Shown piece after piece: positions 8,629-50,547 of a DNA stretch of 64,000 bases. Where the stretch lies: NCBI GenBank assembly GCA_963691655.1, contig OY829328.1:83394400-83458399 (forward strand). The letters run 5' to 3'. The notes below the pieces were generated by a model. The model made no database searches and was not told where the DNA came from. It worked only from the letters and a program-made list of their open reading frames with translations. How positions within the stretch are numbered: the stretch's first letter is position 1; every line of letters begins with the position of its first letter. Both the position numbers and the translations under genes were made by a program. Source of the DNA: Toxonevra muliebris. Lineage: Eukaryota; Arthropoda; Insecta; Diptera; Pallopteridae.

Positions 8629-8689
8629 GGTTGTTGTTAAGAGGGGATGTTTTATTTTTTTTTTTTAATTTTATTAATATTTTAAAAAT

Positions 8690-9916: not shown

Positions 9917-10068
9917 TTAGGTTAGGTTAGGTTAGGTTAGGTTAGGTTAGGTTAGGTTAGGTTAGGTTAGGTTAGGTTAGGTTAGGTTAGGTTAGGTTAG
10001 GTTAGGTTAGGTTAGGTTAGGTTAGGTTAGGTTAGGTTAGGTTAGGTTAGGTTAGGTTAGGTTAGGTT
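9917..10068 (+). repeat. Interstitial (TTAGG)n array, about 30 units
   Basis: An almost perfect run of the pentamer TTAGG (read here as GGTTA), about 150 bp. TTAGG is the ancestral insect telomere repeat, but dipterans have lost telomerase, and this array is embedded in ordinary sequence. It ends exactly where a 5'-truncated R1-type LINE begins, and the same pentamer resumes after that LINE's poly(A), so the LINE inserted inside the array. Confidence 0.95.
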
Positions 10069-12324
10069 TATACCATCGCAGCACTTTCCAGAGCGTGCGA
10101 TGCTGCGATGCCCCGAAGACGTGCAGTCTTGATCAGAAGACCAGTGTACTGGTGGAATGAGGAGATAGCGGCAGCCAGGAAGAAATGCCATCAAGCACGC
10201 AGGAAAGCGCAGAGAGCTCGCTCTCTTCCCGCGTGGGAAGCCCTGCAGCTCGACTATAAAGTTTGTAGAATCGAGCTCAAGAAGGCCATCAGAGACAGCA
10301 AAAACATCTGTTTTAAACAGTTACGCGACAGCGCAGAAACCGATCCATGGGGGATGACATATACAACGGTTATGAGGAAGGTCAGAGGGTTAAGGGCCCC
10401 ACAGCCCACCTGCCCCACACTGATGCGAAAAGTGGTGACCACACTCTTTCCCCCCCAGGAAGAACTTGCTCCACGACAAGATAAGTGCGTGCAAGCACTA
10501 GAAGTCACCGCCAGCGAGGTGCTGGCAACGCTACGAAAGATTGCGGATAACAAGGCCCCAGGACTGGATGGCATCCCCAACGTTGCGCTCAAGGCGGCGA
10601 TCAAAGCTACACCGGAGGTGTTCGCGAAGCTTTTCAGCGCATGCTTGACAGAAGGAGTTTTTCCAGACACATGGAAGCGACAGCGGTTAGTCCTCCTACT
10701 AAAACCAAAGAAGCCGCCGGATGAACCGGCATCCTACCGACCGTTATGCATGCTGGATACACTGGGCAAAGTTCTCGAACGCATTATAGGGGACAGGCTC
10801 CAGGAGTGGCTTGAAAAGCCAGGAGGGCTATCAGCACGACAGTTTGGATTCAGAAGAGGACGATCCACGGTCGACGTAATACAAACTGTGATGAATATTG
10901 CACGCGTGGCCACCAGCGGCAACCAATGGGGAAACGGCAAGAAGAAGTACTGCGCCGTAGTGACGTTGGACATCAAAAATGCCTTCAATTCGGCGAACTG
11001 GCCTCAGATTATGAGTGCACTGAGAGGATTCGAAGCACCGGAGTACCTGTTGCAAATAATCGCAAACTACTTCGACAACAGAATTTTAATATACGATACT
11101 GATAACGGCGTGAAGCAGTATCGTGTCAAAGGAGGCGTTCCGCAGGGCTCCGTTCTCGGCCCAACACTATGGAACGCAATGTATGACGGCATCCTCAAAT
11201 TGGATCTCCCGGAGGATACAACAATCGTAGGATATGCAGACGACATCGCGATAGTGGCAGTAGCCAAACACCTGGATTCGTTACAGGCTATATGTAACGA
11301 TGTCATCTCAAGGGTGAGAAGATGGCTGTACAACTCGAAGCTGGAATTGGAGGAGCAGAAAACGGAAGTCGTGATATTGAGTACCAGAAGAGAACGTGAA
11401 GAGCTGGTCATCACGGCTGGTGATCATAACATCACCTCGTGTCCACACATTAAGTACTTAGGAGTACTTATAGATTCTAGAATGACGTTCAAGGATCACC
11501 TGAAAGCTGCTAGTGGAAAAGCAGCACGAATAAACAGCGCGTTAACACGCATTATGCCGAATATAGGAGGCCCGCAAGAGGGCAGGCGCAGACTGCTTTC
11601 AACGGTTACCACGTCAGTAATCTTGTATGCAGCACCTATCTGAGCGGACAGCAAGAAAATACACCAGAAGGATATCCGTGCGATATATAGACTCAGTGCC
11701 CTGAGGGTTGCGTATCACACAGTATCGGACGATGCTATTTGTGTCATAGCAAGTAAGGTGCCCACAGATTTACAGGCACAAGAGATGAAGCGGTTATATG
11801 GCCGTGACACAAAATCAACCGAAGGCATAAGAAGAGAAGAAAGACAGCGTACCATCATGGAATGGCAGCGAAGATGGGAGTCATCCCAGAAGGGTCGATG
11901 GACCTACAATCTCATTACGGATATAGAAGCGTGGATATCACGCAGACATGGTGAACTGAATTACCACATTACGCAGCTGCTTAGTGGCCATGGGTGCTTC
12001 AAGCAGTACTTGCATAAAATCAACACCGGAGAAGAAGACCCGTTTTGCCCAAGATGCCCAGAGGAACGGGAGAACGCGCAGCATATACTTTTTATATGCC
12101 CACGTTTCAACAAAAACAGAGATGAGCTGGAGAAAGCCTTTGGAGAACCCCCTACAGAAAGGAATCTGACGACACAGATGTGTAACACAGCGGAAAAATG
12201 GAATGCAGCATGCAAGGTTGCTGCAGATATGATGACCACTCTGTATGATGCAGAACGTGCGCGCAAAGTCGAGCGCACGGCAAATACTACAAATATGGAG
12301 CCAGATATCGTCAACCGACGATAA
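10069..12324 (+). pseudogene. Truncated ORF2 (RT) with one premature stop
   Basis: One frame runs from 10069 to 12324, broken only by TGA at 11641-11643. Related copies have Trp (TGG) there, so one G-to-A change explains the stop. Present motifs are YRPLCMLD, QFGFRRGRST, DIKNAFNSANW, GGVPQGSVLGP, the catalytic YADDIAIV near 11234-11257, KYLGVLID, and a C-terminal CPRC...H...C zinc motif near 12046-12110 in the segment after the stop. Compared with the 28.66-kb copy, about two codons are missing around 11710. The endonuclease is gone, so the copy could not move by itself even without the stop. Decay is slight, so the insertion looks fairly recent. Confidence 0.93.
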
Positions 12325-12497
12325 AACCGAACAGAATTGGACAGAAACCAATACTGGCGATTGAGCACTAAGCTCATTACGGCCTTCCGACGTAATACCT
12401 AACGGTGGTTCCGGGAGGAATATCCGTACGGACGAGAGGTGGTTTTAGCGTGAGAATGTCACGCACTGACTGGGTGGCTTTTTATGCTTTCCTCCTC

Positions 12498-12529
<32 letters not shown>
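10069..12529 (+). mobile_element. 5'-truncated R1-type LINE inside a (TTAGG)n array
   Basis: A 2.46-kb partial LINE. It begins abruptly in the linker between endonuclease and RT, so ORF1 and the endonuclease are missing, as expected from incomplete reverse transcription. It ends with about 178 bp of 3' UTR (12325-12500) and 29 A residues (12501-12529). The left junction follows the GGTTA array; the right junction reads poly(A) then GGTTAGG. It is related to, but distinct from, the element at 4091-8689 and is closer to the copies at 28.66 and 63.1 kb. Confidence 0.93.
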
Positions 12530-12531
<2 letters not shown>

Positions 12532-12556
12532 TTAGGTTAGGTTAGGTTGGGTTAAA
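12530..12556 (+). repeat. Right remnant of the split (TTAGG)n array
   Basis: About five GGTTA units, the last ones imperfect (GGTTGGGTTA), directly follow the LINE poly(A). This is the other side of the insertion target. The junction phase, poly(A) then GGTTAGG, is identical to that at 29725/29726. Confidence 0.92.
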
Positions 12557-13843
12557 TACATTAAAGTGCATTGCTTTTCCAAAATTTCGATACTTAGGAC
12601 ATTATTATTATTAGGGAGCGGGCTATTTCACAGCTTTTGTTGGGTGAAGTATACAAACAGATTCTCAGCTCTCTTTTTCGCTCAGTGGAATGCCATTTTT
12701 TATACAATTGCTAGCAGTAGTTGTTTCGTTCAAATTTCAAATTTTCAAATATTCAATTTATACTATATATGTATGTGCAAACATATCTTTAAATTCTGAC
12801 AGACACAAAAAGTGGCAAAGTCATATATGACTACATTAAAACCAAAACAAAACAAAAAATGTACTAAAAATGCAAACAGCTGGGAATTTGTCATGTCAGC
12901 ATAAATTTTGCTGCTTATTTATTCATCAAAGCTACTTTAAATTCAATATTCGAAATAATCAATTTCATTTTACGCGATAATCGAGAGCTGTATGCAGCAA
13001 TCACATTCATCAATCACATTTTTTTTGATAAGAAGAAGAAAAAAATCGTTTACATACAATCCAAAGAATATTATCATAACTCTCGTAGGGGGAAGAGAAA
13101 ATGAACGCAGGAAGTTCTATAGCTTTACGTGAGGTAATATGAATAGCCAGTTTTATATCTGCGTAGCAATTCTTCGAGCGTTTCTTGAGTTTTTCTATGG
13201 GAAGAGGGCTGAAAAGACGTTTGAACAATTAAGTGGATGAATTCAGCAAATTAATTCTGGTTTCTCATATATAATTGAATGAAGTCTTATTTGTAATCAA
13301 AAACCTTAGAACTACGAAACCTCCCCACAGTCGAAATTAAACAAAAATCTAAACAGCGTATATTCCTTAAACTATGAATGGTACATTTTGCCCTCTCTCG
13401 TCTTTCTCTAACTCTACATCTTCCCCAACATTGGCATAATTATCATGTTGTATACAATTTATACAAAACTGTTGCATTATCATTTAAAATAACATTTCAT
13501 TAAGAATTTAACTAAACAGTGATTTGCATATACACATGGCTCATCCTATTTCCTTCTCTCCCTCTCTTTCTCTCTCTATCTTCATTTCTATGGCTGTCTC
13601 TTTATCTATTTATCTAACAACTATTGTAATGCTTAAGTAATCCCATGTGTCACAATATCGCATTGATATTTAATTTAACTATTACTATGCTAAGCTTAAT
13701 TTAGCATCACTTTAACCATGTCACAGACACAAAACAGGGAAAAATACCACAACACACACACATACGCACTTATACAATGCATTCAAAGGAAAGTAAAGGA
13801 ACGTGTGTGACACATGTTTATCATCAGTTAATATTTGTATATG
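12557..13843. other. Gene-free stretch
   Basis: AT-rich DNA with no coding sequence, RNA gene or mobile element that I can support. The open frames at 12566-12799 and 13010-13228 (minus) show no recognisable domain. A pyrimidine-rich CT stretch lies at about 13550-13585 and a short CA stretch near 13752. Confidence 0.5.
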
Positions 13844-13845
13844 TA

Positions 13846-14660
13846 GGGGAATGTCGTCTAGGTTGGAACACAGTCTATGTTGGAACACTGTATTTTTCCC
13901 CGTTTTTTTTCACACTAGCGCCATCTAAGTGTGCGCGCAAAATAGTTTGTCGCAATGACAGCAATCTTTTTATTTCACTTAGAGTTCAGAGCGCGAACAT
14001 TATACACGTGTCGTGAAACCGAGCGTTCAAGTATCGAAAGAAAACTAATTCACAAGCGCCAAAAATGCTTAAAATTGTTCTTGAGTTGTTTTTTTTTTAA
14101 TGTGGAGCTTTATTTTGTGCTCGTATCACGCGTTTGTGGTCGGTATGATATGATGCCAAATGGCGCGTGTATTCTAGGTCGGAACAACCCGAATTTTGCG
14201 GTTATAATGCGTTCTGACAACGGAAATAAATTGTTCGACGTCAAAAAGTTTCAAAACAATAATTTGAAAAAAGTGAATACAAAAAAATGTTGGTGATTTT
14301 TGATGGCTTTTCAGACCAACGTCACGAAATAAAAGGAGAAATTTAAAATTTCGAGAGACGGTTTTTTATTTCAATTTTAAGATTCCTTTCCCCCATTTTT
14401 AAGTATATTTCAGCATTTTTCTTTCGTTTGCAGGCTTATTTAATTATTTTCATACGTACCACCGTATTTTTCCATGGTGTTCCGAACTTGACCACAATAT
14501 TTTTTTCCCAAACTTCTAAACTACTAATTCAATCACTTTGCAAAAAAAAATTGTATTTTGGGAGATCTCCCCAACCATATGCAACATTGCGCCAAATTTG
14601 GCTTGCAACGAAAGTTATGGGTAAAAGTCAAAAGGCGATCCAACCAAGATAACATTTCCC
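13846..14660. mobile_element. TA-flanked TIR element (Tc1/mariner or pogo-type derivative)
   Basis: An 815-bp element with imperfect terminal inverted repeats of about 25 bp. The left end starts GGGGAATGTCGTCTAGGTTG; the right end, reverse-complemented, starts GGGAAATGTTATCTTGGTTG. Both ends abut TA (13844-13845 and 14661-14662), the target duplication of the Tc1/mariner superfamily. The interior shows no transposase frame; open frames at 13777-14016, 13955-14296 and 14428-14652 resemble nothing I know. It is probably a non-autonomous or decayed copy. Subterminal repeats of GTTGGAACAC/GGTCGGAAC occur near 13862-13890 and 14175-14185. Confidence 0.62.
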
Positions 14661-14662
14661 TA

Positions 14663-16104
14663 TGTTTTTTTTTTTTTTTTTGAAGACAATTTTTCCCCTT
14701 GAGTTCAAGTTCATTTATTTATACGTATGAGTAAGTAAAATTTTATTTTACTTTCACATCTATGAAACCATTTTCTTTGCTTTGTAAAATTTCATTAGTA
14801 AAACTGTAAATTTTGAACGTCATAATTAAATTTAATTTTAATTTTTCATTCATTCAATCATTTTTCAATGACAGCAAAATTATATAATTTTCCTATCATT
14901 TTTACTTTTCATATTTTTGTTAGGCTCGGAAAGAAATAAGTGAATTCAGGAGTTTAGCTTCATCACATCTCATTGTTTTGAAACAACTCGGAGAGAACAA
15001 ACCAGAGAACTCCTCCTAAATACAAAGGTGTTAAATTATATCTTTTCTCTTTGTCCTGAACAACGTGGAATATACAAGGCAGTGAATTGTGGAGTTCAAG
15101 CTCATCTCCTTTATTGTTTTGAGTTATATCAAAAGAGAAAGAACAAAGTGATAGACAAAGGAGCTAAGCCATATTTCGTTCATTGTTTTAAAAGAACGCA
15201 GAGAGAAAAGTACAATGAAGTATAGACTATAAATTCTTTTCATTGCATATCTCGTTTAAAACCAATTTGAACAAAACTTTAGTTTGTTGCTGCCCTTAGA
15301 AATAAACAAAAAAGTAAAGAACTAAATTTCATCTAGTATCAAATATTAACTATTTTAGTTCTCTCTCCATTTCAATTCAAATTAGTGACAATTCTATGAA
15401 TCGAAATATTATGTTATTCTTAATATTCATCTAATAAAAGTATTTTCAATTTATTTAATAATATTTCCAGCATACCAAAATAACTGCAGCATTTCATCAC
15501 ATTTCTAAACTTAGACCATTATGCTTTTGTGACAATATCCAATATATTCCTAACAAATCGCACTATTTTCATTGAATTTTTGTTATTACTTATTTTATAT
15601 CCTTATATATTTTCTATGCTTTCCATTGAAATATAATAATTTATAATACTATTATCAGTCTTACATCTTTATTCTTTTAATATTTAATGCTATTTTCAAT
15701 TCTATAATATAAATGCATATATATTATAAATAAAATTCCAATGAAATATTCATGTAAATACAAATTGTTTCATGACGAAAGCAAGTTTTATGTAATTTAA
15801 ACTATATTTATATGAATATATTTTCTTTCAACAAAATTCTGTTTCTTCTTTTTCTCCTTCTTTTTAGCTCATAAATATTTCATCGTTCAGAAAATTGAGT
15901 AAAATTCTTACTACTTAGTTATTTTTAAAAATTTTCCCTCAGACAAGAAAATGAAAGTTTTGATGTGATAAATTTCTTAAGGATACACATATATAAGCGT
16001 GCTTATTCATACACCCAGTTGAAAATATTCGCCACCTGTCAGTAAAAACATTATGATTTTGACTTGGTGTTATGGATTTTGCTTCCCATGGCACAGTATG
16101 TCCG
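14663..16104. other. Gene-free stretch
   Basis: Strongly AT-rich DNA with no supported gene or repeat. The open frame at 15028-15225 has no recognisable motif. There is a T run at about 14666-14681. Confidence 0.5.
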
Positions 16105-16105
16105 A

Positions 16106-16330
16106 TTAGGTTTGGTTAGGTTAGGTTAGGTTAGGTTAGGTTAGGTTAGGTTAGGTTAGGTTAGGTTAGGTTAGGTTAGGTTAGGTTAGGTTAAGTTAGG
16201 TTAGGTTAGGTTAGGTTAGGTTAGGTTAGGTTAGGTTAGGTTAGGTTAGGTTAGGTTAGGTTAGGTTAGGTTAGGTTAGGTTAGGTTAGGTTAGGTTAGG
16301 TTAGGTTAGGTTAGGTTAGGTTAGGTTAGG
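16106..16330 (+). repeat. Interstitial (TTAGG)n array, left half, about 45 units
   Basis: A nearly perfect GGTTA run of about 225 bp. Deviations are GGTTTGG at the left edge and a GGTTAAG unit near 16191-16197. The array ends at a T run (16331-16338), the poly(A) tail of the minus-strand LINE at 16331-21792. The array resumes at 21793 in the same register. Confidence 0.95.
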
Positions 16331-16596
16331 TTTTTTTTCCTTTGGTCTCTCCACGCTACCCGCGTCTCGAGAATTGTATTATTTTATTATAATTTGGTTA
16401 CAAGTTTGTTAACGTAAAGTATGTATAAGTACAATTGGATTTCATAATTCATTTGAATATGTAAAAAGATTTATAGGTCTTTAAAACAAAATATAGACGA
16501 TAATGGAGCTAAAATAATACAGCCTGCGAATTGATACAGGCCGGTATTTATAATATACATTATTATTAAAGTAAGAATATACAATTTGCAAAATAA

Positions 16597-19500
16597 TTAT
16601 GCGTTAAAATTTTTTAAAGTACTTATAATGTGGAATATAAATTTTTTGAATGACTTTGTAAGGTGTTGGTGTGCGGTAATTGCTCTTACATCAAAAGCTG
16701 GAACTTGATGTTCTTCACAAAGCAGCATGTGAATGCGTCGATCTATGGCGTAGCGTGGGCAATCTCGTAGAAGATGACTCAGAGTTTGACAGGTTTCCTG
16801 ATCACAAGGGCAGACGTCGTTATCTATGATTTTGAAGCGTTTTAGGTATTCCTTGTGGAAACCATGTCCGGTGAGAAGTTGGGTCATTTCGAATGAGACG
16901 CCAAAGTTTTCAATGTACATTTTCGCCTCATCTGGAGACTGGAAAAATGCCTTTGTTGCTGAACCTGTCGTAGCTTCTTGATACTCCTGTTGCCATGCTG
17001 CTGCCGTTTCTAGTCGTATTTGTCGTTTTGCGTAACTGATTGGGAATTTTTCATAAGCCAGGTTTGTTACTTGAGTTGCTGCTTCTTTTGCATGCTGATC
17101 GGCAAGCTCATTGCCCTCAAACCCTAAGTGTGCCTTAATCCAAAAGAACTCTATGTAATTTTCTTGATTAAGGCGAAAAAGCCGCTCGTGGATTGATGCT
17201 ATTAAAGGCATGTTATTACTTCGATTTTTAATGGCTTCGAGACAGGACTGGCTATCAGAGAATATCTGCAGATTTGTCGTTGTCAGGTTTTCTTCAGCCC
17301 ACGCCAAGGCAGAGTCGATGGCAAGTGTTTCTGCTTGGAATACTGTACACGCGTTATGAAGCTTATACTTGTGTTCCTCCCAGCTGCCACCATGATGACG
17401 AATAACAAACGCCGCTCCGCACTCGCCTGTATCATATTTGCTTCCATCTGTGTATATCTGGTCGGCATTAGGGTTGATAGTGTTACTTAGTTGCTCGTGC
17501 GTATTTACAGTCCCGTACTCAATAGTTTGGCGTTGAGCTGGGTGCAATTGATGACGTGGGTGTATACGTTGTTGAAGAGTAATATCTCTAGGGAGCGCTG
17601 CAAAAGCGCCGGTTGCTTTTACTTCATCTATTTTTATAGCTTCAGCTACTTTGAGGTGTAACGGTATAAAACCGGAGAGTGCCAACGCAGAAGTGACCGA
17701 AACTGTATGAAACGCCTTGATTGCGCGTATGGCAAAACATCGTTGGAATGAGCGTAGTAGTCGGCGAATGTAGTAGAATTTTATTGCTCTACCCCAAATG
17801 CCAGCAGCGTAAGTAATTGTTGGCTCGATCACTTGCCGGTATATGATGGTGACATTTTCAGCATGTACGCCCCATGTTGGCCGCACAAACCTGCACAGAT
17901 TGCTGAAAATACGCTGGACTTTTGCAATTATGTAGCGCGCGTGGCTTGTGAACTTTAATCGATCGTCGATTACGACACCAAGCAGCTTTATTTCGTTGAC
18001 AAACTTTAAAGCAATCCCATTCATTTCTATTTTTGCCAGCTTGGCTCTTTGCGTGAATGCCATGGTTTGCGTTTTGGCTTCACCAAACACTAGCTTTACA
18101 TCAACACCCCATTTATGTATTAGACGAAGTGCGTTGTTGGTGCTTCGCTCGAGTTCTTCGGTTGTTTTAGCGCTAATAGTTAGAAGAACATCATCAGCAA
18201 AAGCTTGTGTGACGCAGCCACTGGGTAGAGGCAAGGACAATAAATCATCTAGGATTATGTTCCAGAAAGTTGGACCGCAGACCGAACCTTGAACACAGCC
18301 TTTGGTCATATATTTTATCGCTGTGGCGTCAGCGTAATCAATTCTGACGACCCGTTCATCTAGGTAGCTGCGGATAAGATTATAAATATTAGATGGTGTT
18401 CGATGTCTTGCGAGTTGATTAAGAAGTACTGGCCACCAGGCGTTATCGAAAGCGGCTTTAATATCAAGCGAAACGCAAATAACTTGATATTTTTGGCGTT
18501 TTTTATTTTCTATGTGTGTTATGGCGTCTCGAAGTGCATCGACTGTTGATGTCTGTTCTCGAAAGCCATATTGCTTCAGTGACCACAGTTGATGTTTTTC
18601 AGCATGATACGTAAGACGTTTAGTGAATAATTTTTCCAGAAGCTTTCCAAATACAGGAAGGAGTCCAATGGGTCGGTATGATGCCAACTGGTTTGCCTCT
18701 TGCTTGTTTGGCTTTGGAAGGATCTTAACGTATGCTTCTTTCCATGACTTAGGAAAATGTCCAATTCTGAGGCACGCATTGTATAAAGCTGTCAAAAATG
18801 TTAAGTTAAACTTAGCGAATGCAAGACATATATCCGATGTGAAGTGATCAACTCCAGGTGCTCTATTCGGACTCATTGTAACAAGAGCCTCCATTACCTC
18901 GTCTTCAGTGAATTCTGCATCGTTTGGAGTTTCAAGGGTGCCTTTAATATGTTCGCGGAGAAAGCGATGATGAACGGTGGTATCAGCATTGTCATCAGGA
19001 TAAAAATGTTGAAGTAAAGCTTCAGCAGTTCCAAGGCTTGTTTCAGTAAAAGTTCCAGAGTTCTGGAGCGTAGTTGGCGGGCGTTGTGATGGAGCGTCTT
19101 TGATGATACGATTAGTGAGAGACCACACATCTTCTTTTCCTTGTTTATTACAAAAAGACCTGAAATGAGTTATTGATGCATCTCTGAGTGCAGTAGCGTA
19201 TTGATTCTTGGCGACAGCGTGCTCTTCTGCAGCCGCGGCAGTGGATTGGTTAGCTTTACTTAGCCTATTTAATTTATGATGAAGTTTGATGCATTTATCT
19301 TTTAAGGCTTGAAGGTCATCGTTCCACCAAGGATTATACGGTTTAGCGCTTCCACGCTTTTTCATAGACAAAGTGCAAGCGTGGGTGATGGCATCTGTTA
19401 TGAGTTCCACTGTATAATTCAAGGCATCTGGAGTAATTGAAGTGAAGTCTGTACCCAAGACTCCAGACTGCTGGAGATGTTGCCTAAGAGATTCGTTAAA

Positions 19501-20274
19501 AATGTCCCATTTTGCCGTTTTATTATTAAACAAATATGTAGACGCACGTTTTGAATTGGTTATGTTCGAAGGATTCTTAATTTTAAAAGTAATGGCGCTG
19601 TGGTCAGAGTTTTGGATAGCATCAACATTAACACGCCAATCTTTGACGCGATCAACTAAGCTTTCTGACGATAGCGTGACGTCTACAATCGAGCTTGCCA
19701 CGATCCCATGCCGCACTGCATTAAAAGTAGGAATATTGCCTCTGTTGCATACAACCATGGAGTTTGCTGCTACAATGTTAGCTATGACTCTTCCATGTCC
19801 ATTTTCAGTATTTGAACCCCATTGCGGATGCCAACCATTAAAATCGCCACCAATAATCTGCAATGATGAGGATGTTTTTGCAAGAAAGATATTGATATCG
19901 TGAAGTGTATTAAATTGATCTACTCCTGGCTCGACATATGCGCTAGCTATGAATAGTAAGCGTTGACCCATACAGAGTTTGATGACGCTAAGGTTGGGAG
20001 TAGACAGTTGCGAGATGCCAAGCACTGCTCCAATAGTTTTCTTCACTAGAATGCATGATTTAATTTTTCGCTCAGCGACTCCAAACTGAAAAATTGATAT
20101 GCCGTTGACAGGTCGGACTTTATTGGCGTTGCCAATGTACGGCTCAGATATTAGAGCAATATCCACTGCATTGGATATAAAATATTGAAGAAGCTCGTTG
20201 TGTGCCGTATAGCAGCGGTTTACGTTAATTTGGATAAAGCTTAGTGGTTTAACAACCATAATCTGTGCGCGCAT
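16597..20274 (-). CDS. ORF2: endonuclease-RT-RNase H polyprotein of LINE
   Basis: A 1225-aa enzyme for target-primed reverse transcription. Domains in order: APE-type endonuclease (IQINVNRCYTAHNELL near residue 14, ISEPYIGN, GDFNGWHPQWG near 141, SDHSAI near 225); reverse transcriptase (YRPIGLLPVFGKLLEK, QYGFREQTST, DIKAAFDNAWW, CVQGSVCGPTFWN, catalytic FADD near 690, IKLLGVVIDD); RNase H with all four acidic residues (YTDGSKYD near 942, AETLAI, FSDSQS near 1005, ELADQHA near 1055); and a C-terminal Cys/His motif (CPCDQETC...H...C near 1160). The ATG at 20274 precedes a second one at 20257-20259, where ATGGTTGTTAA overlaps the ORF1 stop; either could be used. No internal stop is present, so the enzyme may be active. 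Confidence 0.94.
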   Translation of the reverse strand: MRAQIMVVKPLSFIQINVNRCYTAHNELLQYFISNAVDIALISEPYIGNANKVRPVNGISIFQFGVAERKIKSCILVKKTIGAVLGISQLSTPNLSVIKLCMGQRLLFIASAYVEPGVDQFNTLHDINIFLAKTSSSLQIIGGDFNGWHPQWGSNTENGHGRVIANIVAANSMVVCNRGNIPTFNAVRHGIVASSIVDVTLSSESLVDRVKDWRVNVDAIQNSDHSAITFKIKNPSNITNSKRASTYLFNNKTAKWDIFNESLRQHLQQSGVLGTDFTSITPDALNYTVELITDAITHACTLSMKKRGSAKPYNPWWNDDLQALKDKCIKLHHKLNRLSKANQSTAAAAEEHAVAKNQYATALRDASITHFRSFCNKQGKEDVWSLTNRIIKDAPSQRPPTTLQNSGTFTETSLGTAEALLQHFYPDDNADTTVHHRFLREHIKGTLETPNDAEFTEDEVMEALVTMSPNRAPGVDHFTSDICLAFAKFNLTFLTALYNACLRIGHFPKSWKEAYVKILPKPNKQEANQLASYRPIGLLPVFGKLLEKLFTKRLTYHAEKHQLWSLKQYGFREQTSTVDALRDAITHIENKKRQKYQVICVSLDIKAAFDNAWWPVLLNQLARHRTPSNIYNLIRSYLDERVVRIDYADATAIKYMTKGCVQGSVCGPTFWNIILDDLLSLPLPSGCVTQAFADDVLLTISAKTTEELERSTNNALRLIHKWGVDVKLVFGEAKTQTMAFTQRAKLAKIEMNGIALKFVNEIKLLGVVIDDRLKFTSHARYIIAKVQRIFSNLCRFVRPTWGVHAENVTIIYRQVIEPTITYAAGIWGRAIKFYYIRRLLRSFQRCFAIRAIKAFHTVSVTSALALSGFIPLHLKVAEAIKIDEVKATGAFAALPRDITLQQRIHPRHQLHPAQRQTIEYGTVNTHEQLSNTINPNADQIYTDGSKYDTGECGAAFVIRHHGGSWEEHKYKLHNACTVFQAETLAIDSALAWAEENLTTTNLQIFSDSQSCLEAIKNRSNNMPLIASIHERLFRLNQENYIEFFWIKAHLGFEGNELADQHAKEAATQVTNLAYEKFPISYAKRQIRLETAAAWQQEYQEATTGSATKAFFQSPDEAKMYIENFGVSFEMTQLLTGHGFHKEYLKRFKIIDNDVCPCDQETCQTLSHLLRDCPRYAIDRRIHMLLCEEHQVPAFDVRAITAHQHLTKSFKKFIFHIISTLKNFNA

Positions 20275-21382
20275 TTATCCTCTGTTGCATTAATTTAATT
20301 TGTGGGCAGTGCTTGGCACTTGTTGCGGCATGCTCCACATCAACTTTTGAGTTTGTTTTCGTGTTTCTGTTAGCACAGTTGAAACATTTCAATTTTGCAC
20401 GATTATCCTTATCAGGGCAGCTGTCATAATTGTGCTCTTTGCTAGCGCAATGAGAGCACGGAGTCAGTGATGCATCACATTTGTTTTTGGTGTGACCAAA
20501 TTGAAGGCATTTGAAACACTGCACAAAAGCACTAAAATCTGACACGTTTGCTCGCATGTATTCAATATTAAGGCGTCCAAGACCCATCATTGCATTACGC
20601 ACATTTGGTGTAACTTCTAGTACGGCGTTGTATGAATGATCTGGATTTCTTCGATTTTTGCGCTCAAAGCGAAGTTTGATGTCTTCATTTTCTTTAACTT
20701 CTGCGTTTACATTAGTGTTTTGGATTTTTATCACTTTTATAAGTTCAGTGGCATCGATTTCTTTTGGAATGCCCTTGATTATCACCATTGGTCGCCTGTT
20801 CTTTGCATTTTCAGCTGTAAGGGTCGAGACGTTGGATAACTTCTCCATTGTGACATCACGTTGTTCGTTATTGTCGAATTCAATACGCACTTTGTTGTTC
20901 GAAACTGAAACAAATTTAGCCGGGGCGAAGTTTGTGTCTCTGAAGGAGACACCAGTGCGAAAAGCTTTTATGACATCAGCATGTTTAGCGTTAGTGCCTT
21001 CTGCTGCGCTGATAACAATGCTTGGTTTAGCAATTAGTTCTTGTGATACTCTCTTCATCTTTACGGCATTCGCATAGCTTATCTTGGGAACCACAGGGCC
21101 GACTGTTGTTCCTAGTGATTCTTTTAGAATCGCTAGCTCCTCACGTACAATTGAGCGTATACTTGTGCTAGAATCTTTTAGTGTAGTTTCAGAATTAGCG
21201 GAGTCTTTTAGGGACTCAATTAGCGGAATGAGCGCCGCCAGTTTGGCTATTTCTTCATTGATAGCGTTTTTAATCTCACGCTTAATATTTCCAGAATCTC
21301 CTAGTTGTTTCTTTATTTCCCTTGAAATGGTATTAATTGCATCGATAATAGTTTCTGGAGAACTCATGATTAATTGTATCAA
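20249..21382 (-). CDS. ORF1: gag-like zinc-knuckle protein of LINE
   Basis: A 377-aa RNA-binding protein. The N-terminal part is helical and charged (INTISREIKKQLGD, EIKNAINEEIAKLAALIPLI), plausibly a coiled coil for multimerisation. The middle (PMVIIKGIPKEIDATELIKV) resembles the RRM-like fold found in I-type gag proteins; that is inference. The C terminus holds CFKCLQFGHTKNKC, CSHCASKEHNYDSC and an extended third motif starting CFNCANRN and ending H-CAHC-type spacing, so two to three zinc knuckles. It overlaps ORF2 by 26 bp in a different frame. A second Met six codons in (MSSPETI) could be the true start. Confidence 0.9.
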   Translation of the reverse strand: MIQLIMSSPETIIDAINTISREIKKQLGDSGNIKREIKNAINEEIAKLAALIPLIESLKDSANSETTLKDSSTSIRSIVREELAILKESLGTTVGPVVPKISYANAVKMKRVSQELIAKPSIVISAAEGTNAKHADVIKAFRTGVSFRDTNFAPAKFVSVSNNKVRIEFDNNEQRDVTMEKLSNVSTLTAENAKNRRPMVIIKGIPKEIDATELIKVIKIQNTNVNAEVKENEDIKLRFERKNRRNPDHSYNAVLEVTPNVRNAMMGLGRLNIEYMRANVSDFSAFVQCFKCLQFGHTKNKCDASLTPCSHCASKEHNYDSCPDKDNRAKLKCFNCANRNTKTNSKVDVEHAATSAKHCPQIKLMQQRINARTDYGC

Positions 21383-21792
21383 ATAGTTTTGCTTTAATTG
21401 TTTATTTCGTGAGTATTAATCAATCAGCTGATTGGTTAGGCGTTGTTGTTGACAATCAAATGACAAGTTGGTGGTTTGTGTATAGAATAAACTTTGAAGT
21501 AAAAGCTTTTTCTTTATCTTTATTGAGTGAAAATTCTAATAACGGATCAGCTGTCAGCTGTCCTTAGATGTCTCACCGCGATGTAAAATAAATTAACAAT
21601 TTTTTCTTTTAACGTTACCAGAATCCCAGAAGATGATTTTGACTGCACTTCACGTTCCACAGGAGTAGGGCGACGAGTGCTCCACAGCAATGCACAATAT
21701 GTGGAGGAACTTTGGTTGAAAACACTTTTAAATGCTTATAAATCGGACACGTATTTCACTTGACGTTAGCACTTGACCAGGGTTGCCAAGTG

Positions 21793-21908
21793 TTAGGTTA
21801 GGTTAGGTTAGGTTAGGTTAGGTTAGGTTAGGTTAGGTTAGGTTAGGTTAGGTTAGGTTAGGTTAGGTTAGGTTAGGTTAGGTTAGGTTAGGTTAAGTTA
21901 AGTTAGGA
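21793..21908 (+). repeat. Interstitial (TTAGG)n array, right half
   Basis: About 22 GGTTA units, the last few degenerate (GGTTAAGTTAAGTTAGG). It is continuous in register with 16106-16330 once the LINE is removed, giving an original array of about 340 bp. Confidence 0.94.
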
Positions 21909-22815
21909 CAAGGCTTTAATTAGTTGTACTATTTTTAGTCTTGCATAGTCTGTCTCTAGTGTTTTCTTAATTTTTTCCCTACTCTTATATAGAGTCTTGT
22001 TTCTAGCGTTGCCTCCAGCCTAGTTTGTAGTATATTCTTGTTTTTAATTTTGTCTCTTGCCTTGTCTCTAATTTGGTCGTTCCTCTAGTTTTGTCTAGCC
22101 TTGGCTCTGTTCTTGTATCTAGTTTTGGATCTAAGCTAGTCTCTAATCTTGTCTCTAGTTTTGCCTTTAGTCTTGTCTTTAATCTTATCTTTAATCTCGT
22201 CTTCACACTTTCCTTTAATCTTAGCACTTTCTCTATCCTTGTTTTTAATTTTGTTTCTTGCCTTATCTCTAATTTTGTCGTGTATTTTGTTTGGTTTCTA
22301 GTCATGTCTATAGTCTTGTCTCCAGCTTTGTTTATAGTATTGCTTCTAGTTTTGCCCTTAAGTTTGTTTATAGTCTTGTCACTAGCTTTGTTTCTAGTCT
22401 TGTCTCTAGTTTTATCCTTAGACTTATCTGTAGTTTTTACTCTAGTCCATTCTTTAGTGATAATCTAGTGCCTCTAATCTTGTTTCTAATCTCGATATTA
22501 GTCTTGTCTCTAGTCATGCCTGAAGTCTTGATTCTAATCCCGTTCATAGGCCTGTCTATCTATAATTTTATCTCTCGGTGTTCTCTAGTTTTCTCTAGTC
22601 CTGTGTGTAATCATATCTCTAGCTTCGTTTCTAATCTTATCCCTAGTCTTATTTCCATCCGTGTCTCTAATCTTGTCTCTAGTTTTATGCCTAGATTTTT
22701 CTATAATTTTAACTCTATAGTCTTATCTTCAATGATAATCTAGTGTTTCTAATTTTATTTCTAATCTCGCGTCTATTCTTTTCCGTAGTTTTGTCTCTAG
22801 TCTTAGTGACTTGTT
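21909..22815 (+). repeat. 12-bp minisatellite (TCTAGTCTTGTC-type)
   Basis: A diverged tandem repeat with unit TCTAGTCTTGTC or TCTAGTTTTGTC. The 12-bp period produces long artefactual frames on both strands (for example 22073-22468 plus and 22003-22305 minus, the latter rich in K-T-R-L). These are not genes. The array directly adjoins the GGTTA array. Confidence 0.8.
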
Positions 22816-24131: not shown

Positions 24132-24828
24132 AGCTGTAAAAGAATGCATTCAATTTAATTGCAATACTTTGAAGCCACAGCTAATAAACTAAAATCCGTG
24201 ATTGCAGTTATTGAATAACATATTTGATCCAATATAAAACATGCAGTTGAAAGTCTCTTTTGGTCATCCTTATAACTTAAAAAAAAGATTGCATTCCCAT
24301 TCAAAACAAGATTGCATTCCCATCTTTTTTTGAAGTCTTAGAGATGCAAATCTTATGACCTCAATATCATTACTGCTGTGAAGTCACTTGTGGACACGTA
24401 AAGTCACTTGGAGTCACTTCAATATACTTGGAGTCACTTAAAGTCACTTGGAGTCAATAGGGGGTTTGAAGTCAATTGGAGTCACTTGAAGTCAATTACG
24501 ATTTAAAGTCAATTGGAGTCAACTTAAAGTCATTCATTATATATACATTAACACTAACTTCACATTCAAATTAACTCCAAGTGACATCAAGTGACTTGAA
24601 TTGACTCCAAATGACATCAAGTGACTTGAAAGCAATCATGATTTTGAAGTCATAAGATTTACATTCCCGTGACTTCAAAACAAATAAAAAAAAGATTGCA
24701 TTCCCCTGACTCAAAAAAAAAAATATTTTAAATGAATAACCACTCGCTTACTCCGAATTCAATAACTGCAATCACAATTTATTATTCATTTGTAACGTAT
24801 ACCCTCAATTGATTGCATTCTTTTACAG
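24132..24828. mobile_element. Foldback-like inverted-repeat element
   Basis: An approximately 700-bp near-palindrome. The outer arms share CTGTAAAAGAATGCA and TGATTGCAGTTATTGAAT (left 24134-24216; right 24757-24826, inverted). Inside them, GCAAATCTTATGACCTCAA at about 24343 pairs with its diverged complement at about 24648-24666. The innermost arms are short tandem repeats: AGTCACTTGG units at 24376-24530 against inverted CCAAGTGACATCAAGTGAC-type units at 24570-24630. Long inverted termini built of short direct repeats are the hallmark of Foldback transposons. I find no transposase and no convincing 9-bp target duplication, so a non-mobile inverted duplication is the alternative. Confidence 0.6.
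24376..24640. repeat. AGTCACTTGG tandem repeat and its inverted counterpart
   Basis: Roughly 10 to 12-bp units (AGTCACTTGG, AGTCAATTGG, GAAGTCACTT) in direct orientation up to about 24530, then inverted (CCAAGTGACA, TTGACTCCAA) from about 24570. A short AT-rich centre (about 24535-24560) separates them. They form the inner arms of the foldback-like element. Confidence 0.75.
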
Positions 24829-25129
24829 TTCGGTAAGTCTTGCATTATTTTTTTTTTTTGGTTTGATTTCGTGTATGTGAAAGCGTACAATCGACATAGC
24901 ATTCAAAATAACGAAACACAGTAGTGAGAAGTAAAACGACGGCAATGGCTGAATCAAACGAGTGCGATACAACATGTGTGCACACTTGAAATGAACAAAT
25001 GTGAGCGAATCTTTATATTCATGAGCAAATTGTGCACGCCACTGGTATTTTTGAAGATTCTTTACCTCTTGGGCGCATCCAATCTAAACAACAAAAACTT
25101 TCGTACATACAGTGAGACATGTTTGCACG

Positions 25130-25250
25130 TTCAGAGGAGAATGAAAGGAACTGAAAGAGCTGGTTTTGTCAGTACGAATCAGACATAACCATGAAACAGG
25201 AGCTCTCCGGTATTTATGAAAATCTCCACTTTCCAAAGCACGAAGAAAAA
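25130..25250 (+). mobile_element. Relic of an R1-type LINE 3' end
   Basis: About 100 bp matches, with many changes, the 3' UTR of the LINE copy ending at 29702: GGTTTTGTCAGTACGAATC, AGACATAACCATGAAAC and TCTCCGGTATTTATGAAAAT correspond to blocks at 29610-29695 in the same order, ending in GAAGAAAAATAAT in place of a clean poly(A). It carries no coding part and no GGTTA flank. It shows that this family also left copies outside pentamer arrays. Confidence 0.7.
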
Positions 25251-27585
25251 TAATGTGTGCATGTTAAAAATTTTAATATGCGCCCAATACAACTTGCATC
25301 CAACCGCACATGTTGTATCGGTTCGTGCAACTCTGTGTACCTAAATATCTACTATGGAAATGTCAATAGAATAAAGTGACACAAACAATATTTTGACGAT
25401 GTTCCAAGTAGACTATAGATCTAGAAACTCTGCCAGTATCAGTATTCAACATATTCCGATATTGAAAAGAATCTAAGAGCTCCAGTTGAGTTTAAGAAAC
25501 TCCTGCCCACTGATGATTATCAATTATGAGAAAATTTTGAAAGCATTTTAGAGAAATCTAAATCTGAGATACAAAGGAACTCTTAATGTAGAGCGGGCTG
25601 GTGAAAGTTTTTAGAAGGCAGTCAAGAAAAAAGCTCGAATTGCAAAGAGAATTAAATATTATCAAAATTAAATCTTATGCCTATGAGAAAAAATTATTTG
25701 TAAATAATTATTACATATTCGTTTTTGATTTAGAATATGAAGAAGAAAAATTCCTGATTTTAGCTTAATTTTCATTTCGATTCTTAATTTTCTATATTAC
25801 CCACAAGTTTCTATTAAGCTAAAAATATTTTCATTATTTATATTATTATTAGATGAATTTCTGTTCAATAACAAAAACGACATCATTTTCATTCAATAGG
25901 AAATGCAATTTCTTTCTTAGAATCAATATCATTATGTTGTGGGTAGGTGAAAACTCGCAAATATAAATACAGACACCATAGCAAAAGTAACCCACATACA
26001 CACATATTTCTTAATGCTCTTTTCATATTTTACTTTGCACTATAAATAGCAATAATCTAATAAAAATAATTAAATATCTCTATGCTATAAAGAAAATCCA
26101 GAAGAAGAAGACAGAATAAAAATAAAACGAGAATGTAAATATTTTCACTATAAATTGAACTTTTTTGAAGAAGCGGCGAAGGATTAAATTGCACGAATTG
26201 ACGAACTTGAAACACAAATACACACACACACACATAAACACATACATTTGTATATGTATAAAGTCTAGCAAGGAAGCGTTACTAATACATACACATATAC
26301 CATATCTAATTCCTTGCCTACTAATAATAATAATAATATTAGTGAAAATATATTAACTTATGACGCAAAATGATTGGAAAATAAGAAGAAGAGGAAGGAA
26401 GAAAGGAATGAAGCAATAACAGTAAGAAGAAAAAAGAAAAGTGCAGAGAAAAGGAAGAAAAGTTATTGTAAAAGAGGCAATCAAGCAGTAGCACCAGCAA
26501 CAGATTAATAGGGTGAATTATGTGAGTAACTAACTCGAAGGTGAAAGTGTAGAAAGTGTCGCAGCTTATGTTGCTGCTTCTAGTATGTGTGAACATTTCA
26601 ATAGTGTGTGTCTGTCTATCTGTGTGTCTTACTTAAATTGTACACGCGCGATACTCGACTATGGATACATACAAATATCTAAAGGATATAAGTTTACAAA
26701 TATGTTTATGTGTGTGTGTGTGTGTTTCACTGCCTTGATGTGCTTGTGTGTATGTGTGAATTATATCAAAAATAAATTGCATTATGTGGCAGCGGTAATT
26801 GGTTTATTATGGCAATTTAATGAAAGGCAAGCAACAGCAACAACAACAGCACTAACAATAACAAATTTAATGTGTAAATAATACAAACAAAATGAAATTA
26901 CGCGGCATTATTATACATATTTACAATATATAAATATATGTAGCATATATACATATTTATGTAATTTAACTTGAATCATTTAAGATTAATTTTAATTTAA
27001 ACGTTTTCATAATGCAATTTCAACATAATTTCGTGAGGATGAAAAATCTTTTCACTGTTTGTCATTTACATATTGTATTTAACCAATAACAAAATAAAAT
27101 CGGCATTATCTCGTTAGTGTCAGCCAGACTTCATATCTTTTGGTATGTAAACATCTTAGCTTGTAAGAAAATACATGTGATGTGATGCGCAGCTGTACGG
27201 CGACTGTACATAGTACAGGAGATAGCTCTGAGAAAGCCGACGTATCTACTTGTATTGTACGCTTATATGAAAAAGTCCGATCGTGACATCGCTTCTTTTA
27301 GTGTCTGCTTCCTTTTATATTCACAACATCTGACCACACTATAATTGGCCTGGAGTAGTCTTGTCAGACTTCAACTTGAAACATTTTTTTAATTAACGAG
27401 CAATGTTCATAATGGTTGAGATGAGCAATCATAATATTCTACATAAACCATTTTTAAAATTCATTCTGAAGGAGATAGTATTATTAAGCCCCTGCTTCGG
27501 CAAGAAAAAAATACTAGGTCCCTAGGCAACTATGATTTTGATGTTGAGTTCGAAGATTCCCCGCACCATTGTCGGCAACAAATGA
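25251..27585. other. Gene-free stretch
   Basis: AT-rich DNA with CA/GT microsatellites at about 26219-26233 and 26706-26726 and a purine-rich stretch (GAAGAAG-type) at about 26380-26460. The open frames at 26080-26356, 26339-26596 and 26585-26881 are simple-sequence artefacts. No coding region or RNA gene is supported. Confidence 0.5.
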
Positions 27586-28470
27586 GATGAAATGCAATGA
27601 AAATTATATCAAATAAAATCAAATTAGATGGAATGTAAAATCAAGTCCTATGAAATCCTGTCAATTGAAATCACGTCAGATGAAATCAAATTAATGGAAA
27701 TTAAATCATATGAAATGTAATCAATATAAATCACGTCAGTTTAAATGCAGTTAGTTGAAATCAATGAATGAATTTAAATTGGTTGAAATCATGGTAATTG
27801 TACTCAAATCAAATGTAATTAAATTTGATGAATTCAAGTTGATTAAAATCGATTCAGATGAATTCAAAGATGAATTAAACTTAAATGAAGCCAATTCAGA
27901 TAGAATCTAGTCAGTGGAAATCAAGTCAAAAAAATCAAATCAGATGGCGTCATCATCGTTCGATCAAATGAAATCTAGTCCAACAAAATCAAATCAAACG
28001 AAATCACGTCAGATGAAATCATGTCAAATAGGAATCAAATCAAATTAAATACAGCCAAATGAATTCAAGTCAGTTGAAATCTAATCATGGGTGGAAACTC
28101 GTTAGATGAAATTAAATGAAAGCACATTAAGTTAAATATGTCAGATTGAACCTAAATCAGTTGAAATCCAGTCAGATGAATTTAAGTCTCGTAAAATGAA
28201 GTCAAATGAAATAAAATCATGTTAACGAAATTGCGTCAACTCGAACTGAGTCCGATGATCATCGATCAAACTATTGGAAATCAAGTACAACTAAGTTAAG
28301 TCATACGAAATCAAATCAATTAAAATAAAGTCAAACGAAATGAAGTTAAAAGAAAAAATAAGAAAGAAATCAAAGTTACATATATAAAACGAAATAAAAT
28401 CAGATGAAGCAAATCTGATGAAATCAAAAACACAAAAAAAATAAAAAATGAAACCAAATCATATAAAATG
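27586..28470 (+). repeat. About 15-bp minisatellite (GAAATCAAGTCAGAT-type)
   Basis: Numerous diverged units close to GAAATCAAGTCAGAT, with spacing varying between about 12 and 16 bp. Copies are strongly diverged, so the array is old. There is no coding content. Confidence 0.75.
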
Positions 28471-28656
28471 AAGTCTACTAAGTAGGTACTGCTTTGGTTG
28501 AATAGTCCAGAACCAGGCTGTGCTTTGCGCACTCAAAATATTTCAGAAAAAAAAAGTTTTTTGATTTCTTTCAGTTTTTTCACCTGAACTCTCAGGAAAT
28601 GCGATTTTTCTGTTGATGTCTTAAGCAAAATTGTAGCTAATGTAGATTAGGTTAGG

Positions 28657-29476
28657 TCAGGTGGTAAAGCGGCTAGAATAAACGCGGGCGCTAACGCGCA
28701 ATATGTGGAATATCGGAGGCCCACGGGAGGGCAGGCGTCAGCTGCTTTCAATGGTGACCAGCTCCGTTATACTGTATGCAGCACCCATCTGGGCGAACGC
28801 AAAGAAGACACATCTGAAGGGCATTCGCTCGATTTGTAGGCTCAGTGCACTGAGGATTGCCAGCGCCTATCGTACGGTTTCGGACGACGCCATTTGCGTC
28901 GTAGCAAGAAAATTGCCCATTGACCTACTAGCAATAGAAATGAAGCGCCTTTATAGTATAACTGGAGAAAGGCCAACGAACGTCAGGAAAACAGAAGAGA
29001 GGAAGCGTACCATTATGGAATGGCAGCGAAACTGGGAGCACTCCAAAAAGCGTCGCTGCACCTTTAACCTAATCCCTAATATAGCAGCGTGGATGGAGCG
29101 CAAACATGGAGAAGTCGATTATTTCGTCACCCAAATGCTCAGCGGGCATGGGTGCTTTAAACAATATCTGCACAGATTTAAATTTGAAGAAGACCCGTTC
29201 TGCCCGAAATGCCCGAGCGAACCCGAGGACTCAACACACATCATTTTCCACTGCCCACGCTTCAACAGCATCAGGGAGGAACTAGAGAGAGCTTTTGGGG
29301 AACCCCTCACTGTAGCCAACTTGACAGCACAGATGTGCCAAACGATAGAGAAGTGGAATGCAGTATGCAAGATGGCGAAGAGCATTCTGACATTATTAAG
29401 GAATGCTGAATCTGAACGTAAAGCCGAGCGTGCGCAACGAAATATCGCAAATACAGAAGACGACGAGGATGGGTGA
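28657..29476 (+). pseudogene. C-terminal fragment of R1-type ORF2
   Basis: Homologous to the region after the RT catalytic core: NIGGPREGRR, SSVILYAAPIW, TVSDDAICVVARKLPIDL, RKRTIMEWQRNWE, MLSGHGCFKQYLHRF and the zinc motif CPKCPSEPEDSTHIIFHC. An extra base near 28690, relative to the 10.07-kb copy, puts the first 14 codons (KAARIN part) out of frame with the rest. From 28703 to 29476 the frame is open. With no RT core this fragment is inert. The Trp mutated to a stop in the 10.07-kb copy is intact here (APIWANAKK). Confidence 0.9.
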
Positions 29477-29725
29477 TGAACAATAAACAATTATTGACAC
29501 AACACAAATAGATCCAAACAACAGAATCAACAAACGAGTAACAGCATAAAGCTGAACCAGCCTTGCGAAGTAATACCAACTGGTAGTCCCGCGGGGAGAG
29601 TGGTAGAAGAGGAAGTAGGTGGTTTTAGTCGGTAGGAATCCGACATAACCGTACAACTGGAGTTCTGCGGTATCTATGAAGATTTCCACCTGCCAACGTA
29701 CCAAAAAAAAAAAAAAAAAAAAAAA
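28657..29725 (+). mobile_element. 5'-truncated R1-type LINE at a GGTTA site
   Basis: A 1.07-kb LINE fragment containing only the C-terminal part of ORF2, a 3' UTR of about 226 bp (29477-29702) and 23 A residues (29703-29725). It is flanked on the left by ATTAGGTTAGGTCAGG (about 28646-28656) and on the right by a GGTTA array. Its 3' UTR matches the copies at 25.13 and 63.1 kb. The 3' junction phase, poly(A) then GGTTAGG, equals that of the 10.07-kb copy. Confidence 0.9.
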
Positions 29726-29755
29726 GGTTAGGTTAGGTTACGTTAGGTTGGGTTA
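29726..29755 (+). repeat. GGTTA array after the LINE
   Basis: About six pentamers with imperfections (GGTTACGTTAGGTTGGGTTA) follow the poly(A) directly. They are followed in turn by sequence resembling the end of a reverse-oriented SINE. Confidence 0.9.
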
Positions 29756-50536: not shown

Positions 50537-50547
50537 GACGACCTCGA

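What the first reader, a model, noticed from the sequence alone, without database searches (positions are those of the whole stretch)
9917..29755. Three independent non-LTR insertions in interstitial (TTAGG)n arrays of a probable dipteran
Seen: LINE copies at 10069-12529, 16331-21792 and 28657-29725 are all flanked on both sides by GGTTA/TTAGG pentamers. Known: TTAGG is the ancestral insect telomere repeat, dipterans have lost telomerase, and the moth LINEs TRAS and SART insert specifically in telomeric TTAGG. Inference: in this genome dispersed pentamer arrays serve as safe-harbour sites for LINEs, a non-telomeric analogue of the TRAS/SART system.
Basis: partly seen in the sequence, partly recalled or inferred. 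Interest (0 to 1): 0.9.

Follow-up and report, generated by a model that had tools for sequence, protein, structure and literature searches.

The report
Jumping genes that target telomere-like repeats
In an insect-like genome whose sampled chromosome ends carry no classic insect telomere repeat, jumping genes of at least two different lineages insert at one spot within scattered copies of that repeat, and some of those copies are the tails of another, smaller jumping gene.

Summary
Three LINE copies (el1, el2, el3) sit inside (TTAGG)n arrays. The window lies 9.3 Mb from the right end of a 92.8 Mb contig, so the arrays are interstitial.

In the source assembly 31 el2 matches reach the 3' end; 30 run from an A-tract into CCTAA pentamers on the same strand (the window's own copy is one). 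The other sits in a different short repeat. Full-length el2 copies also have pentamers on the 5' side. Copies of el1 and el3, mostly 95-100% identical, lie in such arrays; 10 of 15 three-prime ends seen, window included, read A(n)|GGTTAGG. Those loci were chosen for arrays or el2; an unbiased el1/el3 census did not complete.

The junctions resemble published TRAS1 (el2) and SART1 (el1, el3) junctions at TT^AGG. Of ten contig ends (8 kb each), six carry a 56-bp satellite, four neither, none TTAGG pairs. Some arrays are the (CCTAA)n tail of a SINE with target duplications in ordinary DNA; one el2 copy lies in a 250-bp tail of this kind.

Verdict: a telomere-repeat-specific LINE system living on dispersed, partly SINE-supplied arrays. 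'Safe harbour' is untested; species unnamed.

The parts
9917..10068 (+). (TTAGG)30 array, 5' flank of el1; ends ...TTAGGTT at the LINE junction
10069..12529 (+). el1: 5'-truncated R1-like LINE (RT and C-terminal part, one in-frame stop at 11641-11643), poly(A)29 at 12501-12529
   Evidence: close copies elsewhere in the genome
12530..12554 (+). 3' flank of el1: A(29)|GGTTAGGTTAGG, like the published SART1 3' junction
16106..16331 (+). pentamer array (45 copies), 3' flank of el2, which reads on the other strand: A(8)|CCTAACC
16332..21791 (-). el2: complete LINE, ORF1 20252-21415 (CCHC motifs seen by eye) and ORF2 16600-20274 (EN, RT, RNase H), A(8) tail
   Evidence: 5' end shared with genome copies
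21792..21907 (+). pentamer array, 5' flank of el2
28646..28657 (+). short pentamer run ATTAGGTTAGGT, 5' flank of el3 (close to the 12-bp upstream target reported for SART1)
28661..29725 (+). el3: 5'-truncated R1-like LINE (C-terminal part), poly(A)23; a different family from el1 (71% nt)
29726..29757 (+). 3' flank of el3: A(23)|GGTTAGGTTAGG
50537..50855 (+). SINE with tRNA-like head (by eye) and its own 3' (CCTAA)4 tail, flanked by a 13-bp target duplication TAGTGACAAGAAG (overlapping the tail by 2 bases): a source of new pentamer arrays
4091..8667 (-). el4: related R1-like LINE outside arrays, 15-bp target duplication next to (AC)n
63077..64000 (-). decayed el3-related LINE whose 3' flank is not pentameric (runs off the window)

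Best explanation
These are target-site-specific LINEs. They use target-primed reverse transcription at TT^AGG inside (TTAGG)n, in both orientations. el2 works like TRAS: its endonuclease is inferred to nick the TTAGG strand after TT, and the exposed GGTT-3' end primes on the poly(A) tail, giving A(n)|CCTAACC. el1 and el3 work like SART: the nick is on the CCTAA strand and the result is A(n)|(A)GGTTAGG. In this genome the target is not at the sampled contig ends. It is a set of dispersed interstitial arrays, at least some of which are the (CCTAA)n 3' tail of a SINE that is probably abundant. Shown: junctions, orientation, recurrence, array position, SINE tails with target duplications, an el2 copy in such a tail. 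Inferred: endonuclease specificity as the cause, and slippage growth of SINE tails into long arrays.
For: 30 of 31 el2 matches that reach the 3' end are followed by CCTAA pentamers on the same strand, 27 of these 30 with a plain A-run|CC join by eye. Five of eight fetched upstream regions held an el2 5' end; all five have pentamers up to or within four bases of it, two with exactly CC|ACTTGG. The first four array places on C1 in an unselected pattern list: three hold el1 copies, one of them also an el2 copy, and the fourth is a SINE tail. el3 relatives at 95-98% end in arrays at four places. In L084 a SINE 3' end (88% over 81 bases) runs through about 250 bases of CCTAA pentamers into an el2 5' end. 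Published SART1 and TRAS junctions agree (passages). None of 10 contig ends (8 kb each) has a TTAGG pair.
Against: el1 and el3 were not surveyed genome-wide without bias, and the el4 control census did not complete. One el1 copy (L062) and one el3 copy (L045) lie in arrays in the opposite orientation; three further 3' ends lack one G (L034 second copy, L050, L076). One el2 match (L078) is in a different short repeat, and the 5' end of the truncated el2 in L064 abuts SINE body, not pentamers. An el3-related decayed copy at 63077-64000 and the related el4 are outside arrays. Some el2 5' junctions carry extra bases. No endonuclease was assayed.
Confidence: 0.9

Rival explanations
1. Chance or weak preference: LINEs land anywhere and three happened to hit microsatellites.
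For: Three of six LINE copies in the window are not at pentamers.
Against: 30 of 31 el2 3' ends are at pentamers in one orientation; binomial P 3.4e-5 for the window alone, after the fact.
Confidence: 0.01
2. The LINEs carry or create the pentamers: arrays grow after insertion from a pentamer-like tail or a slipping target duplication.
For: Arrays flank the LINEs on both sides; the SINE shows that retroposon tails in this genome can be pentameric.
Against: el2 and el1 tails are poly(A), followed by pentamers; arrays exist without LINEs (window 50835-50855, L043); several different insertions lie in one array complex (L034, L051, L064, L070).
Confidence: 0.05
3. Relic telomeres: the arrays are old interstitial telomeres, for example from chromosome fusions, that arrived already loaded with TRAS/SART elements.
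For: Interstitial telomeres with TRAS/SART are described for a butterfly (PMC12036569, passages).
Against: Four el2 copies on C1, C2 (two) and C3 are 100% identical over the 560 bases searched, so insertion is recent; the two SINE-tail arrays checked have target duplications in ordinary sequence; the contig ends sampled lack TTAGG pairs.
Confidence: 0.06
4. The host keeps TTAGG telomeres that the assembly misses, and the interstitial copies are spill-over of an ordinary telomeric TRAS/SART system.
For: The ends of C3 and C5 are neither satellite nor pentamer, so not all true ends were seen.
Against: Six of ten contig ends (both ends of C1, C2, C4) carry long runs of a 56-bp satellite and no TTAGG pair in 8 kb.
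Confidence: 0.05

Closest known systems
SART1 of Bombyx mori (telomere-specific LINE)
   Same: A(n) tail joined to (A)GG of TTAGG on the TTAGG strand; insertion at TT^AGG; needs about TTAGGTTAGGTT upstream (PMC7265360, passages): the same layout is seen for most el1 and el3 ends examined.
   Different: Targets here are interstitial in a genome with no TTAGG pair at the contig ends sampled; kinship of el1/el3 to SART itself could not be tested (no reference sequence in reach).
TRAS1 of Bombyx mori (telomere-specific LINE)
   Same: Opposite orientation to SART; insertion between C and T of the CCTAA strand, nick at TT^AGG (PMC2868851 and PMC7265360, passages): fits el2 3' ends and the two clean el2 5' ends. 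Among PDB chains TRAS1 is the best match of el2 (88 bits; 24 for R1Bm); R1-like proteins of this study score 40-50 bits against it.
   Different: el2 carries RNase H; a figure legend for Bombyx TRAS3 names only EN, RT and zinc finger (PMC4686597). el2 relatives P0001 and P0032, of unknown target, score as well against the TRAS1 endonuclease (94 and 100 bits), so the score does not place el2 in the family.
Interstitial telomeres with TRAS/SART in Lysandra bellargus
   Same: TTAGG arrays inside chromosomes interrupted by specific LINEs (PMC12036569, passages).
   Different: There the chromosome ends have the same repeat; here the sampled ends have a 56-bp satellite or neither.
Waldo and other microsatellite-targeting R1-clade LINEs (recalled)
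   Same: An R1-like LINE with a short repeat as target; el4 of this window sits next to (AC)n.
   Different: Pentamer TTAGG rather than AC-type repeats.

Membership tests
SART-like telomere-repeat LINE (el1, el3) | poly(A) joined to (A)GG of TTAGG, same strand | tested here: met
   10 of 15 three-prime ends examined, window's two included (el1 7 of 10, el3 3 of 5); L034 second copy, L050 and L076 have one G fewer, L062 and L045 lie on the opposite strand; loci not an unbiased sample
SART-like telomere-repeat LINE (el1, el3) | R1-clade RT | tested here: met
   el1 groups with R1-like proteins incl. Bactrocera P0154 (91/98) in a tree of 31 rows; el3 only by similarity to el1; the clade name is recalled, with source names 'R1DM' in support
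SART-like telomere-repeat LINE (el1, el3) | sister to SART in RT phylogeny | not testable with these tools
   no SART reference sequence was reachable
SART-like telomere-repeat LINE (el1, el3) | target at chromosome ends | tested here: not met
   window 9.3 Mb inside C3; 0 of 10 contig ends with a TTAGG pair in 8 kb
TRAS-like telomere-repeat LINE (el2) | insertion on the CCTAA strand with A(n)|(AA)CCTAACC and 5' CCTAACC | tested here: met
   30 of 31 3' ends; six 5' ends in pentamers, window included, two with the exact CC| join and four with extra bases
TRAS-like telomere-repeat LINE (el2) | ORF2 domain set EN, RT, zinc finger without RNase H | tested here: not met
   RNase H at residues 939-1066 of ORF2, E 2.3e-14; reference layout only from a figure legend
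TRAS-like telomere-repeat LINE (el2) | groups with TRAS in RT phylogeny | not testable with these tools
   no TRAS RT reference reachable; el2 lies in a deep separate branch from el1/el4 (100/100)
tRNA-derived SINE (50537-50855) | tRNA-like head with A and B boxes, no coding, target duplications | tested here: inconclusive
   head and B-box-like GGTTCGATTCC by eye; 13-base target duplications in both copies examined; ARAGORN calls no tRNA

The most novel reading that the evidence does not exclude
A target-supply cycle: a SINE that ends in (CCTAA)n keeps sowing telomere-like arrays through the chromosomes, and TRAS- and SART-like LINEs, stripped of a telomeric target when the lineage lost TTAGG telomeres, live on by inserting into those arrays. 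The LINEs would then be commensals of a SINE rather than of the telomere, and perhaps one of them mobilises that SINE.
Probability: 0.4. Interest if true: 0.85.

Novelty: new variant of a known kind. Interest (0 to 1): 0.72.

Why it matters
Telomere-repeat LINEs are thought of as part of telomere upkeep. A genome whose sampled chromosome ends lack the repeat, but in which one LINE family still hits it nearly without fail, separates site-specificity from the telomere. It suggests how such elements outlive the loss of TTAGG telomeres, and shows that a SINE tail can be the landing site of a site-specific LINE. It makes testable whether sequence alone, without telomere chromatin, is enough for targeting, a point that the SART1 authors raise and leave open (PMC7265360, passages).

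Tried and rejected
Viral-contig scans for relatives of el1 and el2 gave no relative; exact pattern scans of the same collection for a poly(A)-TTAGG junction and for the SINE core gave nothing. A (TTAGG)6 scan gave 4 viral contigs that I did not study. The scan of bacterial and archaeal genomes gave 19 LINE-like loci (21-61% identity in the best segment) of no use here. RNAalifold on four 3' UTRs gave a weak structure, not used. My first idea that the right flank of el3 is a SINE body rests on a weak alignment (5 of 1000 shuffles as good) and is not claimed. Register odds from the three window junctions alone are weak (my estimate about 0.01, by hand); the genome copies carry the claim. The SINE dna query found nothing, not even itself, which the tool explains by skipping very common words, so its copy number is unknown and 'abundant' is an inference. 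Endonuclease comparison with the PDB does not decide membership. No structure was predicted.
Full report
What was claimed. The finding says that three LINE copies lie in interstitial (TTAGG)n arrays of a probable dipteran and that the arrays act as landing sites, as in the TRAS/SART system of moths.

The arrays and junctions are real. TTAGG trimers with up to one mismatch match 97 times in the window against a mean of 0 in 100 shuffles. The arrays flank el1 (10069-12529), el2 (16332-21791, minus strand) and el3 (28661-29725) on both sides, all with TTAGG on the plus strand. The el3 left flank is short (28646-28657). Junctions: el1 ...TTAGGTT|LINE...A29|GGTTAGG; el3 ...TTAGGTTAGGT|...A23|GGTTAGG; el2, read on its own strand...CCTAACCTAAC|ACTTGGC...A8|CCTAACC. 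Six LINE copies were found in the window by tblastn with the 224 proteins held; three are in arrays.

What the LINEs are. el1, el3 and el4 are R1-like: el1 and el4 share 50% over 522 residues, el1 and el3 60% over 225, and named relatives include Ceratitis, Bactrocera, Trichogramma and Neodiprion proteins. el2 is complete, with ORF1 and an ORF2 of endonuclease, RT and RNase H, and lies in a deep separate branch of a 31-row tree (support 100/100). In that tree el4 groups with Ceratitis P0061 (100/100) and el1 with Bactrocera P0154 (91/98), which fits a fly but does not prove it; the window LINEs and the four tephritid rows do not form single clades. TRAS1 is the best PDB match of el2 (88 bits); R1-like proteins reach 40-50 bits against it, but el2 relatives of unknown target reach 94 and 100, so this does not settle family.

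Genome test. The window is C3:83394400-83458399 of a 491.4 Mb assembly in 96 contigs. (TTAGG)4 has 2562 forward and 2552 reverse overlapping hits, against 412 and 60 for the reversed word; only the first 100 or so places are listed, all on C1. These fall at four places, all fetched: three (L032, L033, L034) hold el1 copies at 95-99%, one of them (L033) also an el2 3' piece at 99%. The el1 copy in L033 lacks its 3' part. L034 has a full-length el1 relative with open frames of 554 and 1033 codons, stop to stop. The fourth place (L043) is a SINE tail.

el2 census. A search with 560 bases at the 3' end of el2 gave 43 matches from 39 scored candidates, a lower bound by the tool's own note. Of these, 31 reach query base 545 or beyond. 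In 30 of the 31 the A-tract is followed by CCTAA pentamers on the same strand; 27 of the 30 have the plain A-run|CC join by eye and three carry small extras (L049, L053, L065). The window's own copy is one of the 30, and L076 and L077 look like one duplicated stretch, so at most 28 are independent further cases. The exception, L078, is a 50-base match in a different short repeat. The other 12 matches do not reach the 3' end; two of them (L059, L068) are cut short but also run into CCTAACC. Eleven 5'-truncated copies have pentamers on the 5' side too (L060, L061, L062, L066, L067, L069, L070, L074-L077); the one in L064 instead abuts SINE body. For eight copies I fetched the place where a full-length 5' end should be: five had it, three did not. 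The five junctions are CCTAACC|ACTTGG (L088), CCAACC|ACTTGG after a decayed pentamer (L090), CCTAACCGAAC|ACTTGG (L084, L085) and CCTAACCTC|ACTTGG (L086).

el1 and el3 elsewhere. In loci fetched for arrays or el2, el1 3' ends read A(n)|GGTTAGG in L032 (the same place as L024), L034 (full-length copy), L051, L064, L068 and L070; A(n)|GTTAGG in L034 (second copy) and L050; and A(n)|CCTAACC in L062, the opposite orientation. el3 relatives at 95-98% read A(n)|GGTTAGG in L051 and L052, A(n)|GTTAAG in L076 and A(n)|CCTAACC in L045. With the window's el1 and el3 that is 10 of 15 with GG. Two further el3-like pieces (L074 93%, L085 79%) do not show a 3' end. This sample is biased towards arrays. Repeated attempts at an unbiased search did not complete.

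Insertions share arrays. In L064 and L070 an el1 and an el2 copy face each other 3' end to 3' end across two or three pentamers; L034 has two el1 copies in one array complex; L051 has el1, el2 and el3 copies within 3.6 kb.

Where the arrays come from. The (CCTAA)4 at 50835-50855 is the end of a 319-bp repeat with a tRNA-like head. A second copy in L043 is 98% identical over 319 bases. Each whole unit, tail included, is bounded by a target duplication in ordinary sequence: TAGTGACAAGAAG and TAGCAGCCAACGT. So in these two copies the pentamers are the SINE's own tail. In L084 the last 79 bases of a SINE body (88% over 81 aligned bases) run without a break through about 250 bases of CCTAA pentamers into an el2 5' end; the 3' end of that same el2 copy (L046) lies in pentamers as well. 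SINE pieces also adjoin arrays in L061 and L069. What share of all arrays is SINE-derived is not known.

Chromosome ends. I looked at 8 kb at both ends of C1-C5. Both ends of C1, C2 and C4 carry long runs of a 56-bp satellite; both ends of C3 and C5 are neither satellite nor pentamer. TTAGGTTAGG or CCTAACCTAA occurs at 0 of these 10 ends, nor at the starts of the small contigs C6 and C7. Published work says that the 16 dipterans examined lack a simple telomeric repeat (PMC8977481, passages) and lists long repeats of 173-381 bp for Diptera (PMC12036569, passages).

Mechanism. SART1 retrotransposition joins poly(A) to AGG after a nick between TT and AGG, and needs about TTAGGTTAGGTT upstream; TRAS inserts between C and T of the CCTAA strand, and the TRAS1 endonuclease nicks TT^AGG (PMC7265360 and PMC2868851, passages). 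The 3' junctions here fit both. el3 has TTAGGTTAGGT before its junction, close to the SART1 minimum. I infer target-primed reverse transcription directed by the endonuclease. That el2 (deep separate branch, RNase H) and el1/el3 (R1-like) use opposite strands of the same repeat parallels TRAS and SART; whether by descent or convergence cannot be told without reference sequences.

Novelty. TRAS/SART insertion in TTAGG is known, and interstitial telomeres that contain them are described in a butterfly (PMC12036569). In the listings of my paper searches and in passages of eight papers I saw no report of such elements on interstitial arrays in a genome without TTAGG ends, nor of a SINE tail as their target; the library is partial and I read no paper in full. 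Generation of microsatellite families by retrotransposons has a listed precedent in Lepidoptera (PMC2887409, search listing only).

Limits. One assembly, unnamed; no unbiased el1/el3 census; no el4 control census; no biochemical test; SINE copy number unknown.

Noticed in passing
L035, L036, L037, L039, L079, L081 (both ends of C1, C2, C4): Contig ends are long arrays of a 56-bp satellite (CCGCACCCTAAAATCCTATCCAAAAAAAATCACGCTCCTGAATCCCGCTCCTGAAT), with the C-rich strand at left ends and the G-rich strand at right ends: probable telomeric satellite, shorter than the 173-381 bp given for Diptera in one paper.
   Followed up: partly
window 4116-4312 (-) and 29617-29691 (+): The 3' UTRs of el4 (56 bits, full model) and el3 (33 bits, partial, below the gathering score of 38) match Rfam RF00524, the R2 retrotransposon RNA element, although these LINEs are R1-like and el4 encodes an AP-type endonuclease; the el1 3' UTR does not match.
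   Followed up: partly
window 4091-8667: el4 lies between two 15-bp copies of CTCACTCATATCATA right after an (AC)n run: another short-repeat-associated target in the same group of LINEs.
   Followed up: no
window 33382-33537 and 35607-35762: 156-bp inverted repeats, 97% identical, enclose about 2.1 kb with an RNase H LINE fragment: possible terminal inverted repeat element.
   Followed up: no
L034 about 2360-2610: A long run of the variant TTAGA pentamer between two TTAGG blocks, just downstream of an el1 3' end: a point variant that has spread within the array.
   Followed up: no
L062, L045: el1 and el3 copies in arrays in the orientation opposite to the usual one; possible inversions or relaxed strand choice.
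   Followed up: no
window 44094-45084, 48907-50449, 53299-53677: Several large minisatellites (units about 151, 21 and 89/176 bp) in the same window.
   Followed up: no
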